Below are positions 15,122 through 24,747 of a DNA stretch of 64,000 nucleotides, in pieces. This stretch comes from Thermocrinis jamiesonii (GTDB taxonomy: Bacteria > Aquificota > Aquificia > Aquificales > Aquificaceae). The translations under genes and the position numbers were made by a program. Position 1 is the stretch's first letter; each line of letters begins with the position of its first letter. The DNA is taken from NCBI RefSeq assembly GCF_000702425.1, contig NZ_JNIE01000005.1, positions 62,001 through 126,000 on the forward strand, written 5' to 3'. Below the pieces are notes generated by a model. That model saw nothing but the letters and a program-made list of their open reading frames with translations. It ran no database searches and was not told the DNA's origin.

Positions 15122-15358
15122 ATGGCTACAGTTACACCTGACAAAACCTTAGATGCATCTGGTCTAAATTGCCCTCTTCCAGTATTAAAGACAAAAAAGG
15201 CTTTGGAAGAGCTTCAATCTGGTCAAGTGCTGGAGATAATAACCACAGATCCAGGAGCTAAGGCGGACATACCCGCTTTCTGCAACAGGACGGGACATCA
15301 GTTATTAGAAGTTGTAGAAGAAGGCGGTAAGATAATCTTCTACGTAAGGAAGAAATAG
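15122..15358 (+). CDS. tusA: TusA-family sulfur carrier protein
   Basis: 78-aa sulfurtransferase that carries sulfane sulfur as a persulfide on Cys17 in the CPLP motif (LDASGLNCPLPVLKTKKAL). Typical TusA length and fold pattern, ending in IIFYVRKK. A strong AAGGAGG ribosome site precedes the ATG. It heads the row tusA-dsrE2-dsrE3 and, with the shdr genes just downstream, is expected to channel sulfur to the sHdr complex in the cytoplasm, as known for sHdr-containing sulfur oxidisers. Confidence 0.95.
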   Translation: MATVTPDKTLDASGLNCPLPVLKTKKALEELQSGQVLEIITTDPGAKADIPAFCNRTGHQLLEVVEEGGKIIFYVRKK

Positions 15359-15370
15359 GGAGGGATAGAT

Positions 15371-15901
15371 ATGCCAGAAAAACTGGCTATAATAGCTACA
15401 AAGGGAACACTCGATATGGCTTATCCGCCGTTAATACTGGCTTCTACAGCCGCATCCCTTGGTGTGGAAACCGCTATATTCTTCACCTTCTACGGGCTAA
15501 ACATCATCCACAAGCAAAAGATGCACCAGCTAAAGATTGCCCCCATAGGCAATCCAGCAATGCCTATGGCTTTTCCACCTTCCATGCAAAACCCAATTAC
15601 CAACGCTATATCTTCCATATTTCCAGGTCCTCCACAGATAATGGGTATCATTCCGGGTATGACGGACCTTATGACTTATATGATGAAAAAAACCATAAAA
15701 GAGCATGGCGTAGCCAGTATTCCAGAACTTTTGGAAGCTTGTAAAGAAGCGGACGTAAAGTTAATACCTTGCCAAATGACTATGGAGCTTTTCGGCTACA
15801 AATATGAGGACCTTATAGATGGTCTTGAACCTCCTGCAGGTGCGGCAACATTTTTTAATTACGTCTTAGATTCCGAAAAACCGATGATAATCTTTGTGTA
15901 A
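15371..15901 (+). CDS. dsrE2: DsrE2-like sulfurtransferase
   Basis: 176-aa DsrE/DsrF superfamily protein of the DsrE2 branch. Two Cys are present, Cys124 (LLEACKEADVK) and Cys134 in LIPCQMTMELFG, the second being the usual active-site position. Hydrophobic stretches near 15-45 and a Met/Pro-rich region (60-105) fit the membrane-associated character reported for DsrE2. An AGGGAGG-type site precedes the ATG 13 bp after tusA. Expected to exchange sulfane sulfur with TusA. Confidence 0.9.
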   Translation: MPEKLAIIATKGTLDMAYPPLILASTAASLGVETAIFFTFYGLNIIHKQKMHQLKIAPIGNPAMPMAFPPSMQNPITNAISSIFPGPPQIMGIIPGMTDLMTYMMKKTIKEHGVASIPELLEACKEADVKLIPCQMTMELFGYKYEDLIDGLEPPAGAATFFNYVLDSEKPMIIFV

Positions 15902-15912
15902 GGAGGAGACAT

Positions 15913-16329
15913 ATGGCTTACGAAAAGCTGCTTTTTTACATCCTCACTGTGCCTTTTTTTGAAAGGGCAGAGCCAACCACTGGTGAGCTTATCAACCCAC
16001 AGGCAGGTGCGCCATTCTTCTTGGCAACTGCCGCCACCACTATGGATTACGAAGTGGAGATGGTCATAACGTCTGAGGCTGGATTTCTGCTTATGAGGGA
16101 TAATGCCAAAAAGGTTAAGGTAAGACCTGGTGTGGAGCAAACAGTTTATGATTTTATAAAGATGGCTAAGGAAGCAGGCGTGAAGATCTACCTTTGCGTG
16201 CCTTCTTTGGACCTAACAGATATCTATAAGAAAGAAGACGTAAACCCTGAACTGTGCGACGGTATAATAGGTGGTGCGGCCTTCTTGGACAAGCTTATGA
16301 GTGGCGAGTATGCGGTTATTACCCTATAA
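15913..16329 (+). CDS. dsrE3: DsrE3-like sulfurtransferase
   Basis: 138-aa soluble DsrE-superfamily protein with a single candidate active-site Cys95 in KIYLCVPSLDLT. The fold pattern runs FYILTVPFFERAEPTTGEL, VEMVITSEAGFLLM, then VKIYLC. A GGAGGAG site sits before the ATG, 11 bp after dsrE2. The trio tusA-dsrE2-dsrE3 recurs next to shdr genes in sulfur oxidisers, and it probably relays sulfur between TusA and sHdr. The assignment to branch 3 is by context and Cys position. Confidence 0.87.
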   Translation: MAYEKLLFYILTVPFFERAEPTTGELINPQAGAPFFLATAATTMDYEVEMVITSEAGFLLMRDNAKKVKVRPGVEQTVYDFIKMAKEAGVKIYLCVPSLDLTDIYKKEDVNPELCDGIIGGAAFLDKLMSGEYAVITL

Positions 16330-16433: not shown

Positions 16434-17162
16434 ATGGATGGCCACAACTATGGATACAACCTACCCATTTCTGAAAAAACCAAAATGGTTCCTTGGGAGG
16501 AAAAGGTTAGGATCATAGAAGAGGTAAAATCAGATTTTAGGTTTAAGGAGTACATCTTTGGCTGTCTCAACTGTGGCGTATGCACCGCATCCTGTCCTTC
16601 CAATAGATTCTTTGATTATTCTCCAAGGGAAATAGTTCAGAGGTTTTTGGAAGACGACGTGGAAGTGCTATATGATATGATGCACGAATACATATGGGCA
16701 TGCTCTCAGTGTTTTACCTGTTGGATTAGGTGTCCCTTTGTGAATAATCCAGGTGGATTAGTTGCCATAATGAGAGAGGTTGCTGTGCGGAATGCCTTTG
16801 AGGCTACAAAGGACCTTCTAAAACCTTACGGAAGGGTTCTTCTGAAGGTCATGACAACAGGAAACCAGCTCTCTGCGGACATGCTTCAGCCAGACTTCTT
16901 CCCGGACTGGGGTCCAAAGATGGCAGACAACATGGAAAACCTAAGAGCCAAAAGGCTTGCTATACCCTTTGACGTAGGAAAATCCGTCAAAACCGCATGG
17001 GAAGTTTCTCTGGAGACTGCCATAGAAATGTACACCATCTGGAGAGAAACTGGTATTTTTGAAATGCTTGAAAAACTTGACCCAAATCTGTACAACGTCA
17101 TTATGGACATCGTAGAAGAAAACGAAGAAAGGTACGAAGAGCTCTATGGAGAAGAAGAGTAA
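16434..17162 (+). CDS. shdrC1: sHdr complex subunit HdrC1 (iron-sulfur)
   Basis: Electron-transfer subunit (242 aa) of the sulfur-oxidising heterodisulfide-reductase-like complex. Two [4Fe-4S] motifs are visible: Cys44-47-50-54 (GCLNCGVCTASCP) and Cys90-93-96-100 (CSQCFTCWIRCP). The C-terminal half is helical without Cys and is typical of the sHdr version rather than methanogen HdrC. First gene of the C1-B1-A-hyp-C2-B2 block; AGGAGG precedes the ATG. Known role of the complex: oxidation of protein-bound sulfane sulfur in the cytoplasm. Confidence 0.93.
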   Translation: MDGHNYGYNLPISEKTKMVPWEEKVRIIEEVKSDFRFKEYIFGCLNCGVCTASCPSNRFFDYSPREIVQRFLEDDVEVLYDMMHEYIWACSQCFTCWIRCPFVNNPGGLVAIMREVAVRNAFEATKDLLKPYGRVLLKVMTTGNQLSADMLQPDFFPDWGPKMADNMENLRAKRLAIPFDVGKSVKTAWEVSLETAIEMYTIWRETGIFEMLEKLDPNLYNVIMDIVEENEERYEELYGEEE

Positions 17163-17209
17163 GCTTACAAAAGGGTTTAAAGCCCAAAAAACTTAAGGAG
17201 GTGTTTATC

Positions 17210-18574
17210 ATGGCACATGCCAAGTTAGAGTCTAAATGGGGTTACGTTAGCCGTGGGGGTATTCTCAGATACCCCGAAGAGCCACCCTTTCCCGTAAAGG
17301 AACACGACGCCCATTACGACCACATCTTTGAAATGATGGAAGAGCTGGAAGCAAAAGGAGAAATTCTCATACACAGGATCACAGAAGAACACAAGCCTAT
17401 AGCGGTTTATACAAGGACTGGAAGGATAAAGCTTATTCCCACCAACAAACTTTGGCATCATAAGTCCTGTGGGCAATGTGGAAACATTCCCGGATATCCA
17501 GCGTCAATTTTCTGGTTTATGAACAAGTTTGGACTTGACTATCTAAACGAGCCACACCAAACCTCCTGCACCGCTTGGAACTATCACGGTTCTGGCACTT
17601 CTAACCCGGTAGCCCTTGCAGCAGTTTGGCTCAGAAACATGCACCAAGCTTGGAAAACAGGATACTATCCGCTCATTCACTGTGGAACTTCCTTTGGTTC
17701 TTACAAAGAAACTAGAGAACAGCTCATAATGAACAAAGAACTCAGAGATGCGGTAAAGCCTATTCTAAAGAAACTGGGAAGGCTCACTGAAGATGGAAGA
17801 ATAGTCATTCCTCAGGAAATAGTTCATTACTCCGAGTGGGTCCATGCAATGCGTTACCACATAAAAGAGCTGTACGAAAAAGAAGGAAAGGCAAAAGGAA
17901 TAGATGTTTCAAACGTGAGGGTTGCCATACACAACGCATGCCATACCTACAAAATGATCGCAGATGACTATCCTTATGATCCAGAGGTTTATAACGGTCA
18001 AAGACCTGCTGCATCTACCGCTGTGGTGAAAGCCTTAGGAGCACAAGTGGTGGATTACTCTACCTGGTATGACTGTTGTGGTTTTGGTTTCAGGCACATT
18101 CTAACAGAAAGAGAATTTACCAGGTCTATGGCTATTCAAAGAAAACTCAAAGTAATCGCAGAAGAGGTTAAGGCGGACCTGATAGTAACCCACGATACAG
18201 GATGCACCACTACCTTTGAAAAGAACCAATGGATAGGAAAAGCTCACGGGATGTATTACCCGGTAGCGGTTATGTCTGATGTTATGTTTGCAGCGTTGGC
18301 TTGTGGAGCACATCCGTTTAAAGTGGTCCAACTTTACTGGAACTGCTCTAATTATGAACCACTCCTTGAAAAGATGGGTATAACCAACTGGAGAGAGCTA
18401 AAGAAAGAGTGGGAAGACACGGTCAAGTACATAAGCGAGCTTGAAAAGGCTGGCAAATACGACGAGCTTATGGAATTCTTCAAGGAGTATGACCTTTACG
18501 AGCCTTACAGCAGAACTTCCACCGGAAAGCCGAAAGCTTCTGCCACTGCCAACATACCGCTGTTTAAGTCCTAA
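17210..18574 (+). CDS. shdrB1: sHdr complex subunit HdrB1
   Basis: 454-aa HdrB-like subunit carrying Cys-rich cluster motifs: SCGQCG (Cys87/90) with Cys120, then CHTYK...YDCCGFGF and DTGCTTTF. In methanogen HdrB such CCG motifs hold noncubane [4Fe-4S] clusters at the disulfide-reducing site; here they are partly modified, as usual for sHdrB1. The ATG at 17210 follows AAGGAGG; the longest frame would start three codons earlier at a GTG within that site. A GC-rich hairpin lies directly after the stop. Confidence 0.92.
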   Translation: MAHAKLESKWGYVSRGGILRYPEEPPFPVKEHDAHYDHIFEMMEELEAKGEILIHRITEEHKPIAVYTRTGRIKLIPTNKLWHHKSCGQCGNIPGYPASIFWFMNKFGLDYLNEPHQTSCTAWNYHGSGTSNPVALAAVWLRNMHQAWKTGYYPLIHCGTSFGSYKETREQLIMNKELRDAVKPILKKLGRLTEDGRIVIPQEIVHYSEWVHAMRYHIKELYEKEGKAKGIDVSNVRVAIHNACHTYKMIADDYPYDPEVYNGQRPAASTAVVKALGAQVVDYSTWYDCCGFGFRHILTEREFTRSMAIQRKLKVIAEEVKADLIVTHDTGCTTTFEKNQWIGKAHGMYYPVAVMSDVMFAALACGAHPFKVVQLYWNCSNYEPLLEKMGITNWRELKKEWEDTVKYISELEKAGKYDELMEFFKEYDLYEPYSRTSTGKPKASATANIPLFKS

Positions 18575-18582
18575 GCTTTTTT

Positions 18583-18597
18583 GGGGGCTATGCCCCC
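18583..18597 (+). terminator. Hairpin between shdrB1 and shdrA
   Basis: GGGGGC, loop TAT, GCCCCC: a six-pair all-GC stem nine bases after the shdrB1 stop, followed only by ATTTTATAAA rather than a T run. It could attenuate transcription or stabilise the upstream mRNA 3' end and so set the ratio of C1B1 to A-hyp-C2B2. Full termination seems unlikely because the downstream genes belong to the same complex. Confidence 0.45.
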
Positions 18598-18627
18598 ATT
18601 TTATAAACAACTTTTGGAGGTTTTGTT

Positions 18628-19686
18628 ATGGCAAAGAGTGTATTGGTTATAGGTGGCGGTCCTGCAGGTTTGGGTGCAGCGAGGATTCTCGGAAGGCTTG
18701 GCATCCAAACCATCCTATTGGAAAAGGAAGACAGGCTGGGTGGTAACCCTGTGCTCAATCACTACCACACGCTAATACCCAGAAAGCTAAAGCCGGAGCA
18801 AGTGCTGGGTCCCTACATAAGGGAAGTGGAGAGCAATCCAAACGTGCAGGTGAAGTTAAGAACCGAACTAGAAGCCTGCGAAGGAGAACCCGGAAGCTAC
18901 AGAGTCAAACTTTCCAACGGTGAAACTCACGAAGTGGGTGCAATAGTAGTTGCAACTGGTTTTGAACACTTTGACCCCAGAAGAAAGGGAGAGCTGGGAT
19001 ACGGACTTTATCCAGACGTGATAACCAACTTAGAGCTTGAGCAAATGTTCTCCAAAGAAGGAAGGCTTTACAGACCTTCCAACGGTCAGCTTCCAAAGAG
19101 GGTAGCCTTTGTGTTCTGCGTAGGTTCCAGGGATAGACAGCTTGGGGTAACGAACGTGCACTGCTGTAGATACGGTTGCGCTCTGTCTGGACTTCAGGCA
19201 ATGGAGATAAGACAGCACTATCCAGATGTAGATGTTTTCTGCTATTACATGGATGTGAGGACCTACGGCACTTGGGAGTATCCTTTCTATTGGGCACCTC
19301 AAGAACAATACGGTGTTAGGTATGTCAGAGGTAGGATTGCAGAAATCACCTACAGCCCTGCGGACGGAAGGTTAAGGGTAAAGCATGAGGACACCATAGT
19401 TCAAAGACCCTCCGAGGTTCCCATGGACCTTGTGGTTCTCGTGCTTGGAATGGAACCTTCTGCAGGCACAAAGAAGGTTGCCAAGATCCTTGGACTCGCC
19501 CAGGACCCAGACAGCAAGTTCTTAATTCCTTCTGAAGAATCAGGCTCTAACATAATATCCAACAAGCCTGGTATATTTATAGCTGGAGCCTGTAAAGGTC
19601 CCATAGATATAGAATCTTCTCTCTCTGAGGGTGAAGCTGCAGGAGCAGAGGCTGCTGCGTTTCTTAATGCAAAGGTGACTGTATGA
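18628..19686 (+). CDS. shdrA: sHdr complex subunit HdrA (flavoprotein)
   Basis: 352-aa FAD-binding subunit. The dinucleotide fold GGGPAGLGAARILGRLG is at the N-terminus (about 9-25), ATGFEHFDP marks the second nucleotide region, and a Cys cluster FCVGSRD...HCCRYGC (about 167-187) corresponds to the HdrA [4Fe-4S] site. The C-terminus FIAGACKGPIDIESSLSEG is the conserved FAD-binding tail. It is much shorter than methanogen HdrA, lacking ferredoxin and thioredoxin-reductase insertions, as is usual for sHdrA. A TTTGGAGG site precedes the ATG; the end overlaps the next gene by 4 bp. Confidence 0.93.
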   Translation: MAKSVLVIGGGPAGLGAARILGRLGIQTILLEKEDRLGGNPVLNHYHTLIPRKLKPEQVLGPYIREVESNPNVQVKLRTELEACEGEPGSYRVKLSNGETHEVGAIVVATGFEHFDPRRKGELGYGLYPDVITNLELEQMFSKEGRLYRPSNGQLPKRVAFVFCVGSRDRQLGVTNVHCCRYGCALSGLQAMEIRQHYPDVDVFCYYMDVRTYGTWEYPFYWAPQEQYGVRYVRGRIAEITYSPADGRLRVKHEDTIVQRPSEVPMDLVVLVLGMEPSAGTKKVAKILGLAQDPDSKFLIPSEESGSNIISNKPGIFIAGACKGPIDIESSLSEGEAAGAEAAAFLNAKVTV

Positions 19687-20420
19687 GAAAGGTTACTACC
19701 TTAGACGATTTTTTGGTAAGGGACTATTTGATAAAGATCTTAGGAGAAGGTGAGGAGTTTGTCCAAGAGTTTTACAAGGACCTCCTTGCCAAGTCCCTGT
19801 TTTTTCAAAAGACCCTCAGCAAGGAAAGGCTTGCTTCTTTGAGCAAGGAAGATCTGGACCAACTCTTAGAAAAGGTTTTTTCCGTAAGAAGGAAAAGGCA
19901 AAGGTTGATAGAGGAGACGGGTGTGGAGAATCTGAAGAGGGCAATAAGCGACCTGCTTTATGGAAAGGCAAACAGCTGGGAAGAAAGGGTGGAAAACTTT
20001 GTAAAGTCCATAAGGGGTGTGGATAGAAAAGCAGCCAAAGACCTGGCCTCTGAACTTTTGCACTTTACCTTCCCAGAAGATTACGTTCTTTGGACCAGTT
20101 GGATATGGGATCCAGAAAGCGAAAGTGGTGCGGTGGTCTTCTTAAAAGAGGAACCACCCAAAAGGCACATGTACGGAGAAACTTACGAGGAGTTTGAGCA
20201 GATCTACAAGCAAATTCAAGAAAAGCTCTTAGACTTTGGTATAAAAGTTAAAGGCTATCTGTTCGTAGATATCTTCCTTGCCATGATATACGCCACTTAC
20301 GTTGATTACATGACTTTATCTACCATGCACAGTGCCAAGGGATTTTTCCCTCCCGCTGGCGTTATGGCAAGGAGGCTCCTGGGGGTCCAAAGACCAGAAA
20401 ACATTAAGTTGGAGGTTTAA
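19683..20420 (+). CDS. sHdr-cluster conserved hypothetical protein (Hyp)
   Basis: 245-aa protein found between shdrA and shdrC2 in sHdr loci; biochemical role unknown to me. Mostly helical, charged, with no Cys and no recognisable cofactor motif; conserved-looking patches are FPEDYVLWTSWIWDPE (about 138-153) and STMHSAKGFFPPAGVMARRLLG near the C-terminus. It starts inside the shdrA stop (4-bp overlap) and ends 2 bp before shdrC2, so it is translated with the complex and is probably a structural or assembly partner. Confidence 0.85.
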   Translation: MRKVTTLDDFLVRDYLIKILGEGEEFVQEFYKDLLAKSLFFQKTLSKERLASLSKEDLDQLLEKVFSVRRKRQRLIEETGVENLKRAISDLLYGKANSWEERVENFVKSIRGVDRKAAKDLASELLHFTFPEDYVLWTSWIWDPESESGAVVFLKEEPPKRHMYGETYEEFEQIYKQIQEKLLDFGIKVKGYLFVDIFLAMIYATYVDYMTLSTMHSAKGFFPPAGVMARRLLGVQRPENIKLEV

Positions 20421-20422
20421 AC

Positions 20423-21181
20423 ATGGCTATACACGAAAGAAGCTTGGTAGAGCCAGAAAGAATTGTAAGGAAAGAAAGACTTGTTATTGACGGGGTGGAT
20501 GTGTCAGGAGACTGGAACCTGATCATCCTCCCAAGAGTGATAAACGACTACGACCTTGACTTTGCAAAGGAGATAATGGAGTCTCCCGACGGAAAGACTA
20601 TAGTTCAGTGTTATCAGTGTTCTTACTGCACCGCATCTTGCCCTGTGCACAACTATTGGGACGAAAGATACAACCCAAGACACTTTATATACTTGGCAAG
20701 GCTTGGGTTGATAGATGAGCTTCAAAAAAGGGCGGATGTAATGTGGAGATGTGTGTCCTGTCATAAGTGCACCCACAGGTGTCCAAAGGGTGTGCTTGTG
20801 GAAGAGGTGCTAAAGGTTATCCTAAGGGTTATGGCAAAGAAAGGACTCATTGACGAATATCCCTCCAAAAAGTTTGACAAGTTCTTCACAGAAAGCGTGC
20901 TTGAATATGGAAGGATAGAAGACGGAGAACTACTTTTTGGATGGATAGAAAAGCAAGGTTACAAAGTGGTTAAAGACCCAATCCTCAAAAAACCCATACC
21001 TTTTATGGGTGAAACTCCAGAGTGGTTAAAGCAATTGGTGTTAAAGCCCATAAAGTCTATGAATGTGGATTTTCTTATACTGAACGCAAAGCACATGCTC
21101 TTCCATCCAAGGACCAAAAACTGGAACAAATTCAAACAAGTTCTAAGAAAGGTTATGAAAGAAGAAGGAGTATTAACTTGA
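20423..21181 (+). CDS. shdrC2: sHdr complex subunit HdrC2 (iron-sulfur)
   Basis: 252-aa paralogue of HdrC1 with two [4Fe-4S] motifs, Cys63-66-69-73 (CYQCSYCTASCP) and Cys110-113-116-120 (CVSCHKCTHRCP), the canonical HdrC arrangement. An N-terminal extension of about 55 residues precedes the first cluster. Tightly packed between hyp (2 bp) and shdrB2 (13 bp). Thought to pass electrons between HdrB2 and the flavin of HdrA. Confidence 0.93.
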   Translation: MAIHERSLVEPERIVRKERLVIDGVDVSGDWNLIILPRVINDYDLDFAKEIMESPDGKTIVQCYQCSYCTASCPVHNYWDERYNPRHFIYLARLGLIDELQKRADVMWRCVSCHKCTHRCPKGVLVEEVLKVILRVMAKKGLIDEYPSKKFDKFFTESVLEYGRIEDGELLFGWIEKQGYKVVKDPILKKPIPFMGETPEWLKQLVLKPIKSMNVDFLILNAKHMLFHPRTKNWNKFKQVLRKVMKEEGVLT

Positions 21182-21194
21182 AGGAGGTTTAAAA

Positions 21195-22154
21195 ATGGGT
21201 GTTATAGGAAAAAAAGTGGCGTATTATCCTGGCTGTTCCTTAGAAGGTGCAGCAAGGGCTTACGATGTTTCTACAAGAATAGTAGCAAAAGAGCTTGGTT
21301 TGGAACTGGATTATTTAGAGGATTACAACTGCTGTGGTGCTATGGAGTCAAAAAACGTAACCTTTATGGGAACCTTGCTCTTGAATGCCCGAAACATGTC
21401 TTTGGCAAGAAAGCAAGGGCATGATGTGATAGTGGCACCTTGCAATGGCTGTTCCTTCTCACTGCAAAGAACGGAATACTTCTTAGAAACTGACAGCAAA
21501 GTGTTTGAAAAGGTAAATGCTTTGCTGAAAGAAGGTGGAGTGGATCCATTGGACAAAATACCGCAAACCTATCACATTCTTGAGTGGTTCTACCACGAGG
21601 CAGGTCCCCAAAAGGTTAAGGAAAAAACCAAAAAACCACTCAGAGGTCTAAAGGTTGCTAACTATTACGGTTGTCTTTATACAAGACCGCACTTTTACGC
21701 AAGAACCTACGCCCACGCAGGAGGACAGGAAGAGGAAGCAAGACCCAGAAGGAGAGAAACTGCGGACGATGACGAACATCCATACTACATGAACGCCTTA
21801 TTGGAAGCGGCAGGAGCTACCAGCGTACCCTTTGAGCCTATGCATACTCAGTGCTGTGGAGGACCTCACTCTCTGTCTGATGAGCAAGTTTCTGAAAAGT
21901 TTGTGATGATGATCCTTCAAACTGCTAAAAGGAATGGAGCGGATATAATAGCTACAGAATGTCCTCTGTGCCATGCTTCCTTGGAGATGTATAGACACAG
22001 GCTTATGATGAAGGGAGTGCCAGATGTGGATGTACCTGCGGCGTACTTTACTCAGCTTCTTGGCTTAGCTTTTGGATACAGCGCAAGTGACGTAAAGCTC
22101 AAAGACAACCTTTCTGATCCTCTTCCCGTGCTGAGAAGGTTAGGTTTGGCCTGA
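21195..22154 (+). CDS. shdrB2: sHdr complex subunit HdrB2
   Basis: 319-aa HdrB-type subunit with two complete CCG domains: YYPGCSLEG...YNCCGAMES with PCNGCSFSL, and NYYGCLYTRP...TQCCGGPHS with ECPLCHASL. These are the ligands for the paired noncubane clusters of HdrB, so this is the likely catalytic sulfur site of the complex. An acidic/basic insert (about 175-193: GGQEEEARPRRRETADDD) separates the halves. AAGGAGG precedes the ATG. The block C1-B1-A-hyp-C2-B2 ends here. Confidence 0.94.
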   Translation: MGVIGKKVAYYPGCSLEGAARAYDVSTRIVAKELGLELDYLEDYNCCGAMESKNVTFMGTLLLNARNMSLARKQGHDVIVAPCNGCSFSLQRTEYFLETDSKVFEKVNALLKEGGVDPLDKIPQTYHILEWFYHEAGPQKVKEKTKKPLRGLKVANYYGCLYTRPHFYARTYAHAGGQEEEARPRRRETADDDEHPYYMNALLEAAGATSVPFEPMHTQCCGGPHSLSDEQVSEKFVMMILQTAKRNGADIIATECPLCHASLEMYRHRLMMKGVPDVDVPAAYFTQLLGLAFGYSASDVKLKDNLSDPLPVLRRLGLA

Positions 22155-22163
22155 GGCTAAGAT

Positions 22164-22619
22164 ATGGAGAAGGAGTGGGAATACAACGGATGTATTATTC
22201 CACTTGATCTTTATTACGAGATAGAAACCCAAACTTGGTTAAGGGTAAACGAAGACGGAACGGTTACTATGGGCTTGACGGATGTGGGGCAAGTGCGCGC
22301 TGGGCGCTTGCTTCATGCCCGTATAAAGGACATAGGTAAGTTTATAAAAAAAGGCAAACCAGTTGCTTCCCTTGAAAGTGGCAAATGGGCTGGACCTATA
22401 AATGCCTTAGTGGAAGGGGAAGTGGTGGATAGGAACGAAAAGGTTTTGGAACAACCTGATATAATAAACTACGATCCATATGGCGAAGGTTGGATAGTTA
22501 GAATGAAGCCTGTGGATTTGGGAAGGGATTTAAAAGATTTGCTTTATGGACCTCAGGCAATAGAAAAGATGAAAGAATACATAGATGAATGGGATATAAT
22601 CTGTATGAGGTGTACATAG
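22164..22619 (+). CDS. lbpA: Lipoate-binding protein LbpA, first copy (GcvH-like)
   Basis: 151-aa GcvH-like protein with the lipoylation motif ESGKW (Lys74). Proteins of this kind next to shdr genes (LbpA) are the lipoyl partner of the sHdr complex in sulfur oxidation, distinct from glycine cleavage H proteins; no gcvT or gcvP lies near. It follows shdrB2 by 9 bp and its TAG directly abuts the ATG of the thioredoxin-like gene. A second copy lies at 23288-23734. Confidence 0.92.
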   Translation: MEKEWEYNGCIIPLDLYYEIETQTWLRVNEDGTVTMGLTDVGQVRAGRLLHARIKDIGKFIKKGKPVASLESGKWAGPINALVEGEVVDRNEKVLEQPDIINYDPYGEGWIVRMKPVDLGRDLKDLLYGPQAIEKMKEYIDEWDIICMRCT

Positions 22620-22877
22620 ATGGCAGCGAAGGACAAGCACGTCATACTTTTGGTATCCCAGTGGTGTGCTACTTGTCCGGATGCGGATGCTCTTTGGCAG
22701 AAGCTTCAAAAGGAGTACGGTTTTAAGTATGAGGTTTTGGATGTAGCCCAGCCTGAAGGTAGGATGTGGGCAAAGAAGCTTATGGTGCGCGCTGTGCCTT
22801 CCACAATAATAGACGGAAAGCTAACCTTTGTGGGTGTTCCTTCAGAAGAAGAAGCAAGGAGGGCAATAGAATCGTGA
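22620..22877 (+). CDS. Thioredoxin-like small protein
   Basis: 85-aa thioredoxin/glutaredoxin-fold protein with a CATC active site (Cys16/Cys19, SQWCATCPDAD) and the cis-Pro in RAVPSTIIDGK. It is shorter than classical thioredoxin, closer to the mini-glutaredoxin/MJ0307 size class. Placed between lbpA1 and a DsrE-like gene, it is well suited to reduce or exchange persulfides or the lipoyl disulfide of LbpA, but that is inference from context. Confidence 0.8.
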   Translation: MAAKDKHVILLVSQWCATCPDADALWQKLQKEYGFKYEVLDVAQPEGRMWAKKLMVRAVPSTIIDGKLTFVGVPSEEEARRAIES

Positions 22878-23263
22878 AGGTGATTATTCTAATGACCAGC
22901 GGACCAAAAACTCCCTGGAGATGTGCCTCCCCCTTTTACATAGCAGCTTTAATGGCTTCTAACGATGCGGATGTAGAGATGTTTTTTAACATGGATGGAA
23001 CCAGGCTTTTAAAAAAAGGTGTGGCAGAGAAAATACTCCCTGCGGAACCAAATTGTCTTAGTCCCAACGGGAAAAAATTAAAAACTGTCTATGACTTTAT
23101 GAAGGATGCTAAACAGGCAGGTGTTAAGTTTTATTCTTGCAAGCAAGCAATAGACTCTTTGGGATACAAACCCGAAGAGCTTATTCCAGAGCTGGACGGT
23201 ATTGTGCCAGCCAGTGAGTTTGCCCTTAGGGCAATGGAGGCAGATAAAGTGCTAACATTTTAA
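22874..23263 (+). CDS. DsrE-like sulfurtransferase (third copy)
   Basis: About 129-aa DsrE-superfamily protein. I place the start at the GTG at 22874, which overlaps the preceding stop as GTGA; the longer frame begins inside the thioredoxin-like gene with an unrelated Arg-rich segment. Cys are at about 17 (TPWRCASPF), 61 and 89 (KFYSCKQAID), the last matching the active-site position of DsrE3 (KIYLC). The pattern MKVIILMTSG...ALMASNDADVEMFF is the usual DsrE beta-alpha start. Probably a sulfur carrier specific for the LbpA part of the locus. Confidence 0.83.
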   Translation: MKVIILMTSGPKTPWRCASPFYIAALMASNDADVEMFFNMDGTRLLKKGVAEKILPAEPNCLSPNGKKLKTVYDFMKDAKQAGVKFYSCKQAIDSLGYKPEELIPELDGIVPASEFALRAMEADKVLTF

Positions 23264-23287
23264 AATCTTATAAAAGGAGGGTGTAGT

Positions 23288-23734
23288 ATGGCAGTAGTTA
23301 ATGGATGCAACATTCCAGAAGATTTGCTCTATGATGTAGACCCAGAGGCTAATGCCTTCACCTGGGCAAAGGACAACGGTGATGGCACCTATACCATAGG
23401 ACTAACATCCATAGCCGCAGCAATGGCTGGAAGGTTGGTCGCTTACACACCCAAAAAGGTGGGTAAGGTCATAGAAAGACGCAAAAGCGTAGCGACCATA
23501 GAGAGCGGTAAATGGGTAGGGCCGGTTCCCACACCCTTAACTGGAGAGATCGTGGAAATCAACGAAGCTTTAAAAACAAACCCTGCTTTGGTAAACGATG
23601 ACCCATACGGTCAAGGATGGATCGTTAAGATAAAGCCAACAAACCCGGATGAGATAAACAACCTTTTGACGGGACAAGCAGCGGTGGATGCTTTAACGAA
23701 GGTAGCCAACGAAAAGGGTATAAAGTGTGGATAA
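23288..23734 (+). CDS. lbpA2: Lipoate-binding protein LbpA, second copy (GcvH-like)
   Basis: 148-aa GcvH-like protein with lipoyl site IESGKW (Lys75), about as long as the first copy but clearly diverged from it (for example VGPVPTPLTGEIV versus AGPINALVEGEVV). AAGGAGG precedes the ATG. Two LbpA copies in one sHdr locus suggest separate partners or separate lipoyl states. Its 3' end overlaps the radical SAM gene by 10 bp if the GTG start of the latter is used. Confidence 0.9.
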   Translation: MAVVNGCNIPEDLLYDVDPEANAFTWAKDNGDGTYTIGLTSIAAAMAGRLVAYTPKKVGKVIERRKSVATIESGKWVGPVPTPLTGEIVEINEALKTNPALVNDDPYGQGWIVKIKPTNPDEINNLLTGQAAVDALTKVANEKGIKCG

Positions 23735-24747
23735 AACAGATGCAGGAGGGGATTGTTCCCCTCCTTGAAGACACAGGGTTAGATTACAACCTCTTGGAGC
23801 GTTTGCTTGAAGGTTTCAGAATAAGGGAAGAAAACTTTGGAAAGAAGATCCACTTTTACAGCCCAGGATTTAAACACTATCAGGTGGACGACTTTTACAT
23901 AGAAACCACTCCTAAGTTTGTGGATGTTTCCATAACTGGAAGGAACTGTGAGTTAATGTGTGATCACTGCGCATCCAAAATTCTCTGGCACATGATACCC
24001 GCCACCACACCCGAAGAGTTAAAAAGAGTGGGAGAGGAGCTAAAGGCTAAAGGAGTAGATGGGATCCTCATATCCGGTGGTTCCAATAAAGACGGTGTTG
24101 TAGAACTTTATCCCTTCTTTAAGGCTATAGAATATCTAAAGAAAGAACTAAAACTTTTGACCACATGCCACGTTGGGTTGGTAGACAAAGCCTTGGCTGA
24201 AGGGCTAAAGGAAGCAGGGGTGGATGCGGTACTCATAGATATCATCGGAGACGACCGAACTATAAGAGAGGTTTATAAACTGCCCCACAAATCCACAAAG
24301 GACTACGAAGAGTCTTTGAGGCTTCTCAAAGAATACGGACACAGAATAGTCCCACACGTGATAATAGGATTGCATTACGGAAAGATATTGGGAGAGCAAA
24401 AGGCAATAGACATAATATCCCAATTTGACCCGGACGGTTTGGTTTTGGTGGTAGTTATGCCCTACTACGGAAAGGCAAAGTTTCAGCTTTTGCCCCCACC
24501 AAAGGCCGAAGAATGTGCAGACGTCATACTTTATGCGAGGAAAAAACTGCCCAAAACTCCCGTTGTGATAGGGTGTGCAAGACCTGCAGGACCTGAAAGG
24601 ACAAAGCTTGATCTTTACTCCCTTTATGCTGGTGTAAACGGTATAACCTTCCCAGCGGAAGGCATTCTAACACACGCAAAACAGATTGGTTTAGAGCCTG
24701 TAATATCTCCAAACTGTTGCTCAACCGTAATATTTCCCATAAATTAA
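23725..24747 (+). CDS. Radical SAM protein, candidate LipS-type lipoyl synthase
   Basis: 340-aa radical SAM enzyme with the CxxxCxxC cluster at Cys75-79-82 (RNCELMCDHC) and a GG-type SAM motif (ILISGGSNKDG). A C-terminal NCCS pair and GCARP supply extra Cys that could bind an auxiliary cluster. It is not a standard LipA. In sHdr loci, radical SAM enzymes named LipS1/LipS2 build lipoate on LbpA, and the position directly after lbpA2 makes that the best guess. Only one of the expected pair, and no ligase, is in the window. Start GTG 23725 has AAAAGGG upstream; ATG 23740 is the alternative. Confidence 0.72.
   Translation: MWIKQMQEGIVPLLEDTGLDYNLLERLLEGFRIREENFGKKIHFYSPGFKHYQVDDFYIETTPKFVDVSITGRNCELMCDHCASKILWHMIPATTPEELKRVGEELKAKGVDGILISGGSNKDGVVELYPFFKAIEYLKKELKLLTTCHVGLVDKALAEGLKEAGVDAVLIDIIGDDRTIREVYKLPHKSTKDYEESLRLLKEYGHRIVPHVIIGLHYGKILGEQKAIDIISQFDPDGLVLVVVMPYYGKAKFQLLPPPKAEECADVILYARKKLPKTPVVIGCARPAGPERTKLDLYSLYAGVNGITFPAEGILTHAKQIGLEPVISPNCCSTVIFPIN

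What the first reader, a model, noticed from the sequence alone, without database searches (positions are those of the whole stretch)
22164..24747. Duplicated LbpA flanking a CATC thioredoxin and an extra DsrE, then a radical SAM enzyme
lbpA1-trx-dsrE-lbpA2-rSAM is a compact sub-module appended to shdr. Both LbpA copies keep the lipoyl Lys but are strongly diverged, and a small redox protein plus a sulfur carrier lie exactly between them. One reading is that one LbpA receives sulfur from the DsrE-like protein while the thioredoxin-like protein resets the lipoyl disulfide, with the radical SAM protein building lipoate in place.
Basis: partly seen in the sequence, partly recalled or inferred. 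Interest (0 to 1): 0.6.

Follow-up and report, generated by a model that had tools for sequence, protein, structure and literature searches.

The report
Thioredoxin-linked lipoate protein pair, sulfur oxidation
In heat-loving sulfur-oxidising bacteria one of two lipoate-carrying proteins has its own thioredoxin and a two-cysteine tail, while the other is paired with a sulfur carrier; this suggests why such bacteria keep two, a question left open in the literature.

Summary
In detail: downstream of shdrB2 in a Thermocrinis-like genome lie lbpA1, a CATC thioredoxin, a third DsrE gene, lbpA2 and a radical SAM gene that best fits LipS1.

Comparative genomics splits this into [lbpA1–trx] and [dsrE–lbpA2, usually with lipS1]. 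trx directly follows lbpA1 in every Aquificaceae genome where both can be read. In four genera the pair lies away from shdr. One genome has an extra copy fused into one LbpA1–Trx protein.

All trx-linked LbpA1 end in a C-terminal CxxC (CMRC). LbpA2, and nearly all copies of a third paralog without trx (LbpA3), have one C-terminal cysteine. Bacillota shdr clusters repeat the partition in another gene order: shdrB2–lbpA[CMRC]–trx versus a divergent lbpA[one Cys]–dsrE arm. An Acidithiobacillus plasmid carries lbpA[CMRC], trx and an shdrB1-like gene.

The 2018 LbpA paper reports no conserved cysteine difference between LbpA1 and LbpA2 and calls the need for two unexplained.

Best reading: LbpA2 is the sulfur-input carrier served by DsrE; LbpA1 is a redox carrier whose CMRC tail is cycled by its own thioredoxin. 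The chemistry is inferred, not shown.

The parts
15122..16329 (+). tusA (15122-15358), dsrE2 (15371-15901), dsrE3A (15913-16329): sulfur carriers at the head of the shdr cluster
   Evidence: Pfam TusA 8e-30, DrsE_2 1e-50 and 8e-10
16434..22154 (+). shdrC1 (16434), shdrB1 (17201), shdrA (18628), shdr 'hyp' (19683), shdrC2 (20423), shdrB2 (21195): type I sHdr core
   Evidence: Gene order and HdrA/HdrB family matches; same order in relatives
22164..22619 (+). lbpA1: lipoate-binding protein, GcvH fold, 151 aa
   Evidence: PF01597 4e-38; AlphaFold2 pLDDT 90.9 and GcvH structures as best fold matches
22191..22193 (+). LbpA1 Cys10, N-terminal conserved cysteine
   Evidence: Invariant in alignment A1; Arg in one genome, L014
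22383..22385 (+). LbpA1 Lys74, lipoyl attachment site (ESGKW)
   Evidence: Invariant in alignments
22602..22613 (+). LbpA1 C-terminal CxxC (Cys147-Met-Arg-Cys150)
   Evidence: Present in every complete trx-linked LbpA1; absent from LbpA2
22620..22877 (+). trx: 85-aa thioredoxin, starts directly after the lbpA1 stop
   Evidence: PF13192 4e-14; directly behind lbpA1 wherever both can be read in Aquificaceae
22665..22676 (+). Trx active site CATC (Cys16, Cys19) in WCATCP
   Evidence: WCxxCP conserved across Aquificaceae, Bacillota and plasmid partners; only the fusion copy has WCSAS
22874..23263 (+). dsrE: third DsrE-family gene, partner unit of lbpA2
   Evidence: PF02635 3e-16; next to lbpA2 in all genera where the cluster was read; PDB match 3mc3
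23138..23140 (+). DsrE Cys89 (FYSCKQ), candidate sulfur-carrying cysteine
   Evidence: Conserved in all orthologs read
23288..23734 (+). lbpA2: lipoate-binding protein, 148 aa; Lys75 at 23510-23512, Cys7 at 23306-23308, single C-terminal Cys147 at 23726-23728
   Evidence: PF01597 1e-41; single C-terminal Cys in all orthologs read
23725..24747 (+). lipS1: radical SAM protein with CX3CX2C (23947-23970), LipS1-like
   Evidence: NF053742 4e-68, 229.8 bits against a cut-off of 230

Best explanation
The module is the end of a type I sHdr sulfur-oxidation cluster with two functionally split lipoate-binding proteins. LbpA2 (one C-terminal Cys) works with the DsrE protein as the sulfur-loaded carrier that presents sulfur to sHdr. 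LbpA1 (C-terminal CMRC) works with the thioredoxin encoded directly behind it as a redox carrier: its CxxC tail is a reversible dithiol/disulfide, or sulfur-bridged pair, that exchanges electrons or sulfur with the lipoyl arm and/or the CCG cluster of sHdrB and is reset by Trx. LipS1 makes the last sulfur insertion of lipoate assembly, with a LipS2-like protein and a ligase encoded elsewhere. Shown here: the linkage, its conservation over 11 Aquificaceae genera and in a second phylum, the gene fusion, the match of the CMRC tail with trx, and the DsrE-LbpA2 versus Trx-LbpA1 partition in two phyla. Inferred: that Trx acts on the tail, the direction of electron flow (a reductive reset is favoured) and any contact with sHdrB. 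Rough odds: functional Trx-LbpA1 link 0.9; tail as the site 0.7; the division of labour as stated 0.55.
For: trx behind lbpA1 in 56 genomes' worth of hits, one family, 11 genera, adjacency read. Pair moves as a unit: away from shdr in g2, g3, g8, g11, where shdr goes straight from B2 to dsrE-lbpA2. LbpA1-Trx fusion in G009. CMRC tail in 40 of 40 complete Aquificaceae LbpA1 from named records, 39 with trx and one cut by the contig end; 37 of 38 unlinked LbpA3 have one tail cysteine. Bacillota: 12 genomes with lbpA(CMRC)-trx, ten of them directly behind shdrB2; in three clusters read in full the other, one-Cys lbpA lies with a DsrE gene on the divergent arm. Acidithiobacillus plasmid: lbpA(CMRC), trx and an shdrB1-like gene together. 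Trx-linked LbpAs of three phyla form one clade, SH-aLRT 95.
Against: No biochemistry. The trx-CxxC association gives only two independent contrasts on the tree. CxRC tails also occur in Bacillota LbpAs with no trx within 1.5 kb, and one LbpA3 without trx ends in CKSC (L171), so a CxxC does not require a linked trx. The Trx part of the fusion has lost its second active-site Cys. LbpA1 of A. aeolicus (matched by position and mass to GcvH3, aq_944) was not detected in cells grown on H2 plus thiosulfate, while LbpA2 was. The genome has a lipoamide dehydrogenase over its cut-off, so Trx is not needed to recycle the lipoyl group in principle.
Confidence: 0.55

Rival explanations
1. LbpA1-Trx is not primarily part of sulfur oxidation. 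It is a separate thiol-redox pair (stress or NO/Fe-S protection) that was captured next to shdr in some lineages.
For: Stand-alone pairs away from shdr in four Aquificaceae genera and one Bacillota genome. The plasmid copy sits among hemerythrin, globin, hcp and NnrS genes with no shdrA or shdrC annotated. LbpA1 undetected in A. aeolicus grown with thiosulfate.
Against: In Aquificota trx was found only in the family that carries shdr: 52 of 54 genomes with a clear LbpA2 have it and the two without are incomplete. It sits at the same place in shdr in seven Aquificaceae genera and behind shdrB2 in Bacillota. The plasmid copy is with an shdrB1-like gene.
Confidence: 0.15
2. Trx handles sulfur, not electrons: it takes persulfide sulfur from, or gives it to, the CMRC tail of LbpA1, so both LbpAs are sulfur carriers fed or drained by different partners.
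For: All other small proteins of the cluster are sulfur carriers. The Trx part of the G009 fusion keeps only one active-site Cys, WCSAS, which fits a single-thiol carrier better than a dithiol reductase.
Against: All stand-alone partners keep both active-site cysteines and the cis-Pro motif of dithiol thioredoxins.
Confidence: 0.13
3. One reading: one LbpA receives sulfur from DsrE and the same LbpA's lipoyl disulfide is reset by Trx, the second LbpA being redundant.
For: All four genes are neighbours in seven genera and overlap or nearly so in the window.
Against: The genes separate into lbpA1-trx and dsrE-lbpA2 in four genera and in Bacillota. Both LbpA types are retained in nearly all genomes with different tails.
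Confidence: 0.1
4. Trx serves maturation: it keeps LbpA1 thiols reduced so that the ligase and LipS1/LipS2 can lipoylate it, with no role in turnover.
For: lipS1 lies in the same run of genes.
Against: LbpA2 is the neighbour of lipS1 and has no trx; stand-alone lbpA1-trx pairs have no lip gene next to them in the loci annotated.
Confidence: 0.07

Closest known systems
sHdr-LbpA sulfur-oxidation system, type I (Cao et al. 2018 eLife, PMC6067878)
   Same: shdrC1B1A-hyp-C2B2 order, TusA and DsrE carriers, two LbpA types with N- and C-terminal cysteines, LipS1 nearby; Aquificae are included in that study's Group I.
   Different: The paper reports no cysteine difference between LbpA1 and LbpA2 and its main text has no thioredoxin. 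It says maturation genes are strictly in the same operon in this group; here the LipS2-like gene and ligases are elsewhere.
Sulfobacillus hdr gene clusters (Justice et al. 2014, PMC4378227)
   Same: Legend of the cluster figure lists thdx (thioredoxin) and gcsh among the genes drawn.
   Different: The thioredoxin is not discussed in the part of the sulfur section read; no CxxC tail, pairing rule or fusion is mentioned there.
Glycine cleavage H protein (GcvH)
   Same: Fold and lipoyl lysine of both LbpAs.
   Different: Bona fide GcvH of this genome is a separate gene beside gcvPA and lacks the N- and C-terminal cysteines.
Small archaeal-type thioredoxins (MJ0307 family)
   Same: TIGR00411 is the best family match, and PDB 1nho and 1fo5 are among the structure matches.
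   Different: Below the family cut-off (50.5 against 92.75 bits); the genes are bound to lbpA.
Two-cysteine C-terminal arms such as DsrC, and the thioredoxin-reduced tail of ribonucleotide reductase (own knowledge, analogy only)
   Same: A flexible C-terminal cysteine pair that carries sulfur or electrons and meets a CCG-domain protein or thioredoxin.
   Different: Here the tail is on a GcvH-fold lipoyl protein; no homology.

Membership tests
Type I sHdr-LbpA cluster | shdrC1-B1-A-hyp-C2-B2 gene set in order | tested here: met
Type I sHdr-LbpA cluster | lbpA gene(s) with lipoyl lysine and N- and C-terminal cysteines | tested here: met
Type I sHdr-LbpA cluster | Lipoate maturation genes in the same operon (as stated for Aquificae in PMC6067878) | tested here: not met
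   Only lipS1 is in place; LipS2-like gene on contig C4 and ligase-family genes on C2. This is a description of the group rather than a strict criterion
LipS1 lipoyl synthase | NF053742 over its cut-off and radical SAM CX3CX2C motif | tested here: inconclusive
   229.8 bits against a cut-off of 230; motif present; no other family near
DsrE-family sulfurtransferase | DsrE family match over the cut-off and a conserved cysteine | tested here: met
   60.1 bits against 22.7; Cys89 conserved
DsrE-family sulfurtransferase | Persulfide transfer activity | not testable with these tools
   Needs protein
Thioredoxin | CxxC active site and cis-Pro in a thioredoxin domain | tested here: met
   Thioredoxin_3 52.7 bits against 24.8; CATC and VPST
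Lipoylated LbpA | Lipoylation at Lys74/Lys75 | not testable with these tools
   Lysine and motif present; needs mass spectrometry

The most novel reading that the evidence does not exclude
The CMRC tail of LbpA1 is a DsrC-like two-cysteine arm on a lipoyl protein: it docks at the CCG cluster of sHdrB1, carries sulfur or electrons between that site and the lipoyl arm, and is recycled by a private thioredoxin. sHdrB1, LbpA(CMRC) and Trx would be a minimal exchangeable unit, also used outside sulfur oxidation (plasmid island with hemerythrins and NO-stress genes).
Probability: 0.25. Interest if true: 0.82.

Novelty: new variant of a known kind. Interest (0 to 1): 0.64.

Why it matters
The 2018 description of LbpA says the reason for two LbpA types is unexplained and that no cysteine difference separates them. 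Here is such a difference, coupled to a dedicated thioredoxin, conserved in Aquificaceae and Bacillota and found on an Acidithiobacillus plasmid, with a natural fusion and a paralog (LbpA3) that lacks trx and, in 37 of 38 cases, the second tail cysteine. It turns 'why two lipoate proteins?' and 'how is the lipoyl carrier recycled?' into tests with point mutants and thioredoxin traps.

Tried and rejected
Recent tandem duplication of lbpA: not favoured by the tree, though a single Aquificaceae clade is not rejected (p-AU 0.21).

CxxC tail as a single-origin trait: rejected as one clade (p-AU 0.0011), so it was ancestral and lost, or gained more than once.

Statistical independence of trx and CxxC: only two independent contrasts, no significance possible.

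Trx as a necessary replacement for lipoamide dehydrogenase: not supported, a lipoamide dehydrogenase over its cut-off is encoded.

Viral contigs: no relatives. The plasmid search gave the Acidithiobacillus island, the one useful hit outside Aquificota and Bacillota.

Read-through LbpA1-Trx chain (TAG read as Q; window plus four loci whose genes are in frame): mean pLDDT 61, Trx part under 50, so uninformative. An earlier alignment mixing single proteins was misaligned and not used. The LbpA1 model used an alignment with rows from genome-search loci.

Full report
Check of the observation. lbpA1 (22164-22619) ends in TAG and trx (22620-22877) starts on the next base; the trx stop overlaps the dsrE start (GTGA, 22874); a gap of 24 bases with a Shine-Dalgarno-like AGGAGG precedes lbpA2 (23288-23734); the radical SAM gene overlaps the lbpA2 end by ten bases (23725-24747). 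Family searches give GCV_H for both LbpAs, Thioredoxin_3, DsrE and Radical_SAM. The radical SAM protein matches LipS1 at 229.8 bits against a cut-off of 230, and no other family comes close. Both lipoyl lysines (K74, K75) are in ESGKW. Upstream lies a complete type I sHdr cluster with tusA, dsrE2 and dsrE3A, so this DsrE is the third of its kind here.

Host. The window lies in a 1.3 Mb, 10-contig genome. Its closest named relatives at this locus are Thermocrinis MAGs, 94-97% identical in LbpA1. Its family was sampled as 64 genomes in 11 genera.

The module is two units. In the phylum, trx matches at E <= 1e-8 were found in 56 genomes of 11 genera, all of this one family. Wherever both genes could be read, trx lies directly behind lbpA1 on the same strand, within 15 bp of its last codon. 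In genera g1, g4, g5, g6, g7, g9 and g10 the pair is followed by dsrE and lbpA2, with shdrB2 just upstream (in g6 the contig starts just before lbpA1). In g2, g3, g8 and g11 the pair is not next to shdr; in g2, g3 and g11, where the shdr cluster was read, it goes shdrB2-dsrE-lbpA2, usually followed by lipS1. So trx belongs to lbpA1 and dsrE to lbpA2, and the position 'exactly between' the two lbpA genes is the junction of two units. Genome G009 has, besides a separate lbpA1-trx pair, an in-frame LbpA1-Trx fusion of 255 aa (L041:8418-9185). Its LbpA part keeps a CMKC motif; its Trx part reads WCSAS, so the second active-site cysteine is gone.

A cysteine difference between the LbpAs. Trx-linked LbpA1 ends in CMRC plus one residue (CIRC in one genome). 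LbpA2 ends in KCG or similar, with one cysteine. A third paralog, LbpA3, stands elsewhere in the genome (L043:11064-11504; 57% identical to LbpA1) and usually ends in VECKG or VNCG with an extension, again one cysteine. Among the loci from named records, 40 complete LbpA1 have the CMRC or CIRC tail: 39 have trx, and in the last one the contig ends inside trx. Of 38 complete LbpA3, none has trx in its locus; my script scored all 38 as one-cysteine, but on reading the tails one (L171) ends in CKSCS, a CxxC of another kind, so the count is 37 of 38. The genome's bona fide GcvH sits beside gcvPA and lacks these cysteines. 'LbpA2' is used as in the literature: the A. aeolicus LbpA2 is aq_402, which by map position fits the shdr-embedded copy.

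The same partition in another phylum. A Bacillota genome (G136) has a stand-alone lbpA(QCMRCTE)-trx pair. A search of 151 genomes of its class gave lbpA(CMRC)-trx in eleven further genomes, ten of them directly behind shdrB2 and one on a short contig. In the three such clusters read in full, the divergent arm carries a second lbpA with one C-terminal cysteine followed by a DsrE-family gene, with a tusA match between them in two. Other Bacillota clusters have tandem LbpAs, one with a one-cysteine tail and one with a CxRC tail, but no trx within the 1.5 kb read. An Acidithiobacillus ferrooxidans plasmid carries trx (WCPVCP), a hemerythrin, lbpA (QCMRCSE), a second hemerythrin and an shdrB1-like gene 60% identical to the window's, with no shdrA or shdrC annotated.

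Phylogeny. With the tail columns removed, Aquificaceae LbpA1 and LbpA3, the Bacillota trx-linked LbpAs and the plasmid LbpA form one clade (SH-aLRT 95; 94.9 when the most distant rows are left out); Aquificaceae LbpA2 forms another (99). LbpA3 may be nested in LbpA1, but this is not resolved (p-AU 0.53 for LbpA1 as one clade). Uniting Aquificaceae LbpA1, LbpA2 and LbpA3 is not rejected (p-AU 0.21), so ancient paralogy is favoured, not proven. All CxxC LbpAs as one clade is rejected (p-AU 0.0011). The trx-CxxC association rests on two independent contrasts, so it is strong by conservation, not by many independent origins. The one-cysteine LbpAs of the Bacillota type I clusters could be placed with LbpA2 (not rejected, p-AU 0.48) but are not shown to be orthologous.

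Lipoate assembly. LipS2 acts on octanoyl substrates first and LipS1 on the 8-mercaptooctanoyl intermediate (PMC9585515). The window genome's best LipS2 match is at C4:16064-16996 (199.5 bits, under the cut-off of 270). Ligase-family matches are on C2, one in a 729-aa protein. A lipoamide dehydrogenase over its cut-off is on C2. So lipS1 in this place is one part of a dispersed pathway.

Structure. LbpA1 folds with mean pLDDT 90.9, with a C-terminal helix (130-142) followed by the cysteine tail, and its best structural matches are GcvH proteins, T. thermophilus H-protein first. No coordinates were available for measuring distances. A read-through LbpA1-Trx chain with five sequences gave mean pLDDT 61 and says nothing about docking.

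Literature. Cao et al. 2018 (PMC6067878) named LbpA1 and LbpA2, include Aquificae in the tree, state that the reason for two is unexplained, that cysteines do not differ between the types, and that no dihydrolipoamide dehydrogenase gene is apparent in the bacterial clusters. Its main text does not contain 'thioredoxin'. Justice et al. 2014 (PMC4378227) list a thioredoxin among the genes drawn in the Sulfobacillus hdr clusters without discussing it in the part of the sulfur section read. So the gene had been seen next to hdr and gcsH; the pairing rule, tail motif and fusion were not found described in the papers I could search. A proteome of A. aeolicus on H2 plus thiosulfate (PMC10052474) detected LbpA2 and GcvH2, which I match to LbpA3 by position and approximate mass, but not GcvH3, which I match to LbpA1 by position and mass (18.11 kDa). 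That is a caution against assuming LbpA1 is always in use.

Mechanism. Shown: linkage, fusion, the CMRC-trx match, and the DsrE-LbpA2 and Trx-LbpA1 partition. Inferred: LbpA2 receives sulfur through DsrE; the CMRC tail of LbpA1 is the Trx substrate; electrons probably flow from Trx to the tail and reset LbpA1 after it has been oxidised or sulfur-loaded at sHdr. The shdrB1-like gene on the plasmid suggests sHdrB1 as the other partner of the tail, by analogy with the DsrC arm and its CCG-domain partner (own knowledge). The direction, and whether the lipoyl disulfide or the tail is the main site, cannot be decided from sequence.

Verdict. A real and widely conserved feature of a known system, with a previously unreported (as far as I could search) cysteine difference that comes with its own thioredoxin: a new variant of a known kind with a specific, testable division of labour between the two LbpAs.

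Noticed in passing
L238:11659-27375 (A. ferrooxidans plasmid NZ_CP040512.1): An shdrB1-like gene, lbpA(CMRC) and trx lie among globin, two hemerythrin, DUF2249, hcp and NnrS genes with no shdrA or shdrC annotated, suggesting use of the LbpA-Trx pair outside sulfur oxidation, perhaps in nitrosative stress.
   Followed up: partly
L043:11064-11504 (G000:C3:273063-273503): A third LbpA1-like paralog (LbpA3) stands alone in nearly every Aquificaceae genome, usually with one C-terminal cysteine and never with trx; function unknown. In one genome (L060) a dihydrolipoamide-dehydrogenase-like ORF lies two genes away.
   Followed up: partly
L041:8418-9185: LbpA1-Trx fusion protein in G009 whose Trx part has lost the second active-site cysteine (WCSAS).
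   Followed up: partly
L098:7001-7453 (= L014): One Thermocrinis MAG has Arg instead of the N-terminal conserved Cys10 in LbpA1 (YNGRIIP); real or a sequencing error.
   Followed up: no
window 19683-20420: The conserved shdr 'hyp' gene between shdrA and shdrC2 matches no Pfam or NCBIfam model at E <= 0.001.
   Followed up: no
L181:1913-4102 (G000:C2): A 729-aa protein whose N-terminal part matches the lipoate/biotin ligase family followed by a long cysteine-containing C-terminal part; candidate lipoate ligase of unusual architecture.
   Followed up: no
L208-L225 (Bacillota): Bacillota shdr clusters with tandem LbpAs, one with a single-Cys tail and one with a CxRC tail plus extension, no trx nearby, tusA downstream in several.
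   Followed up: partly
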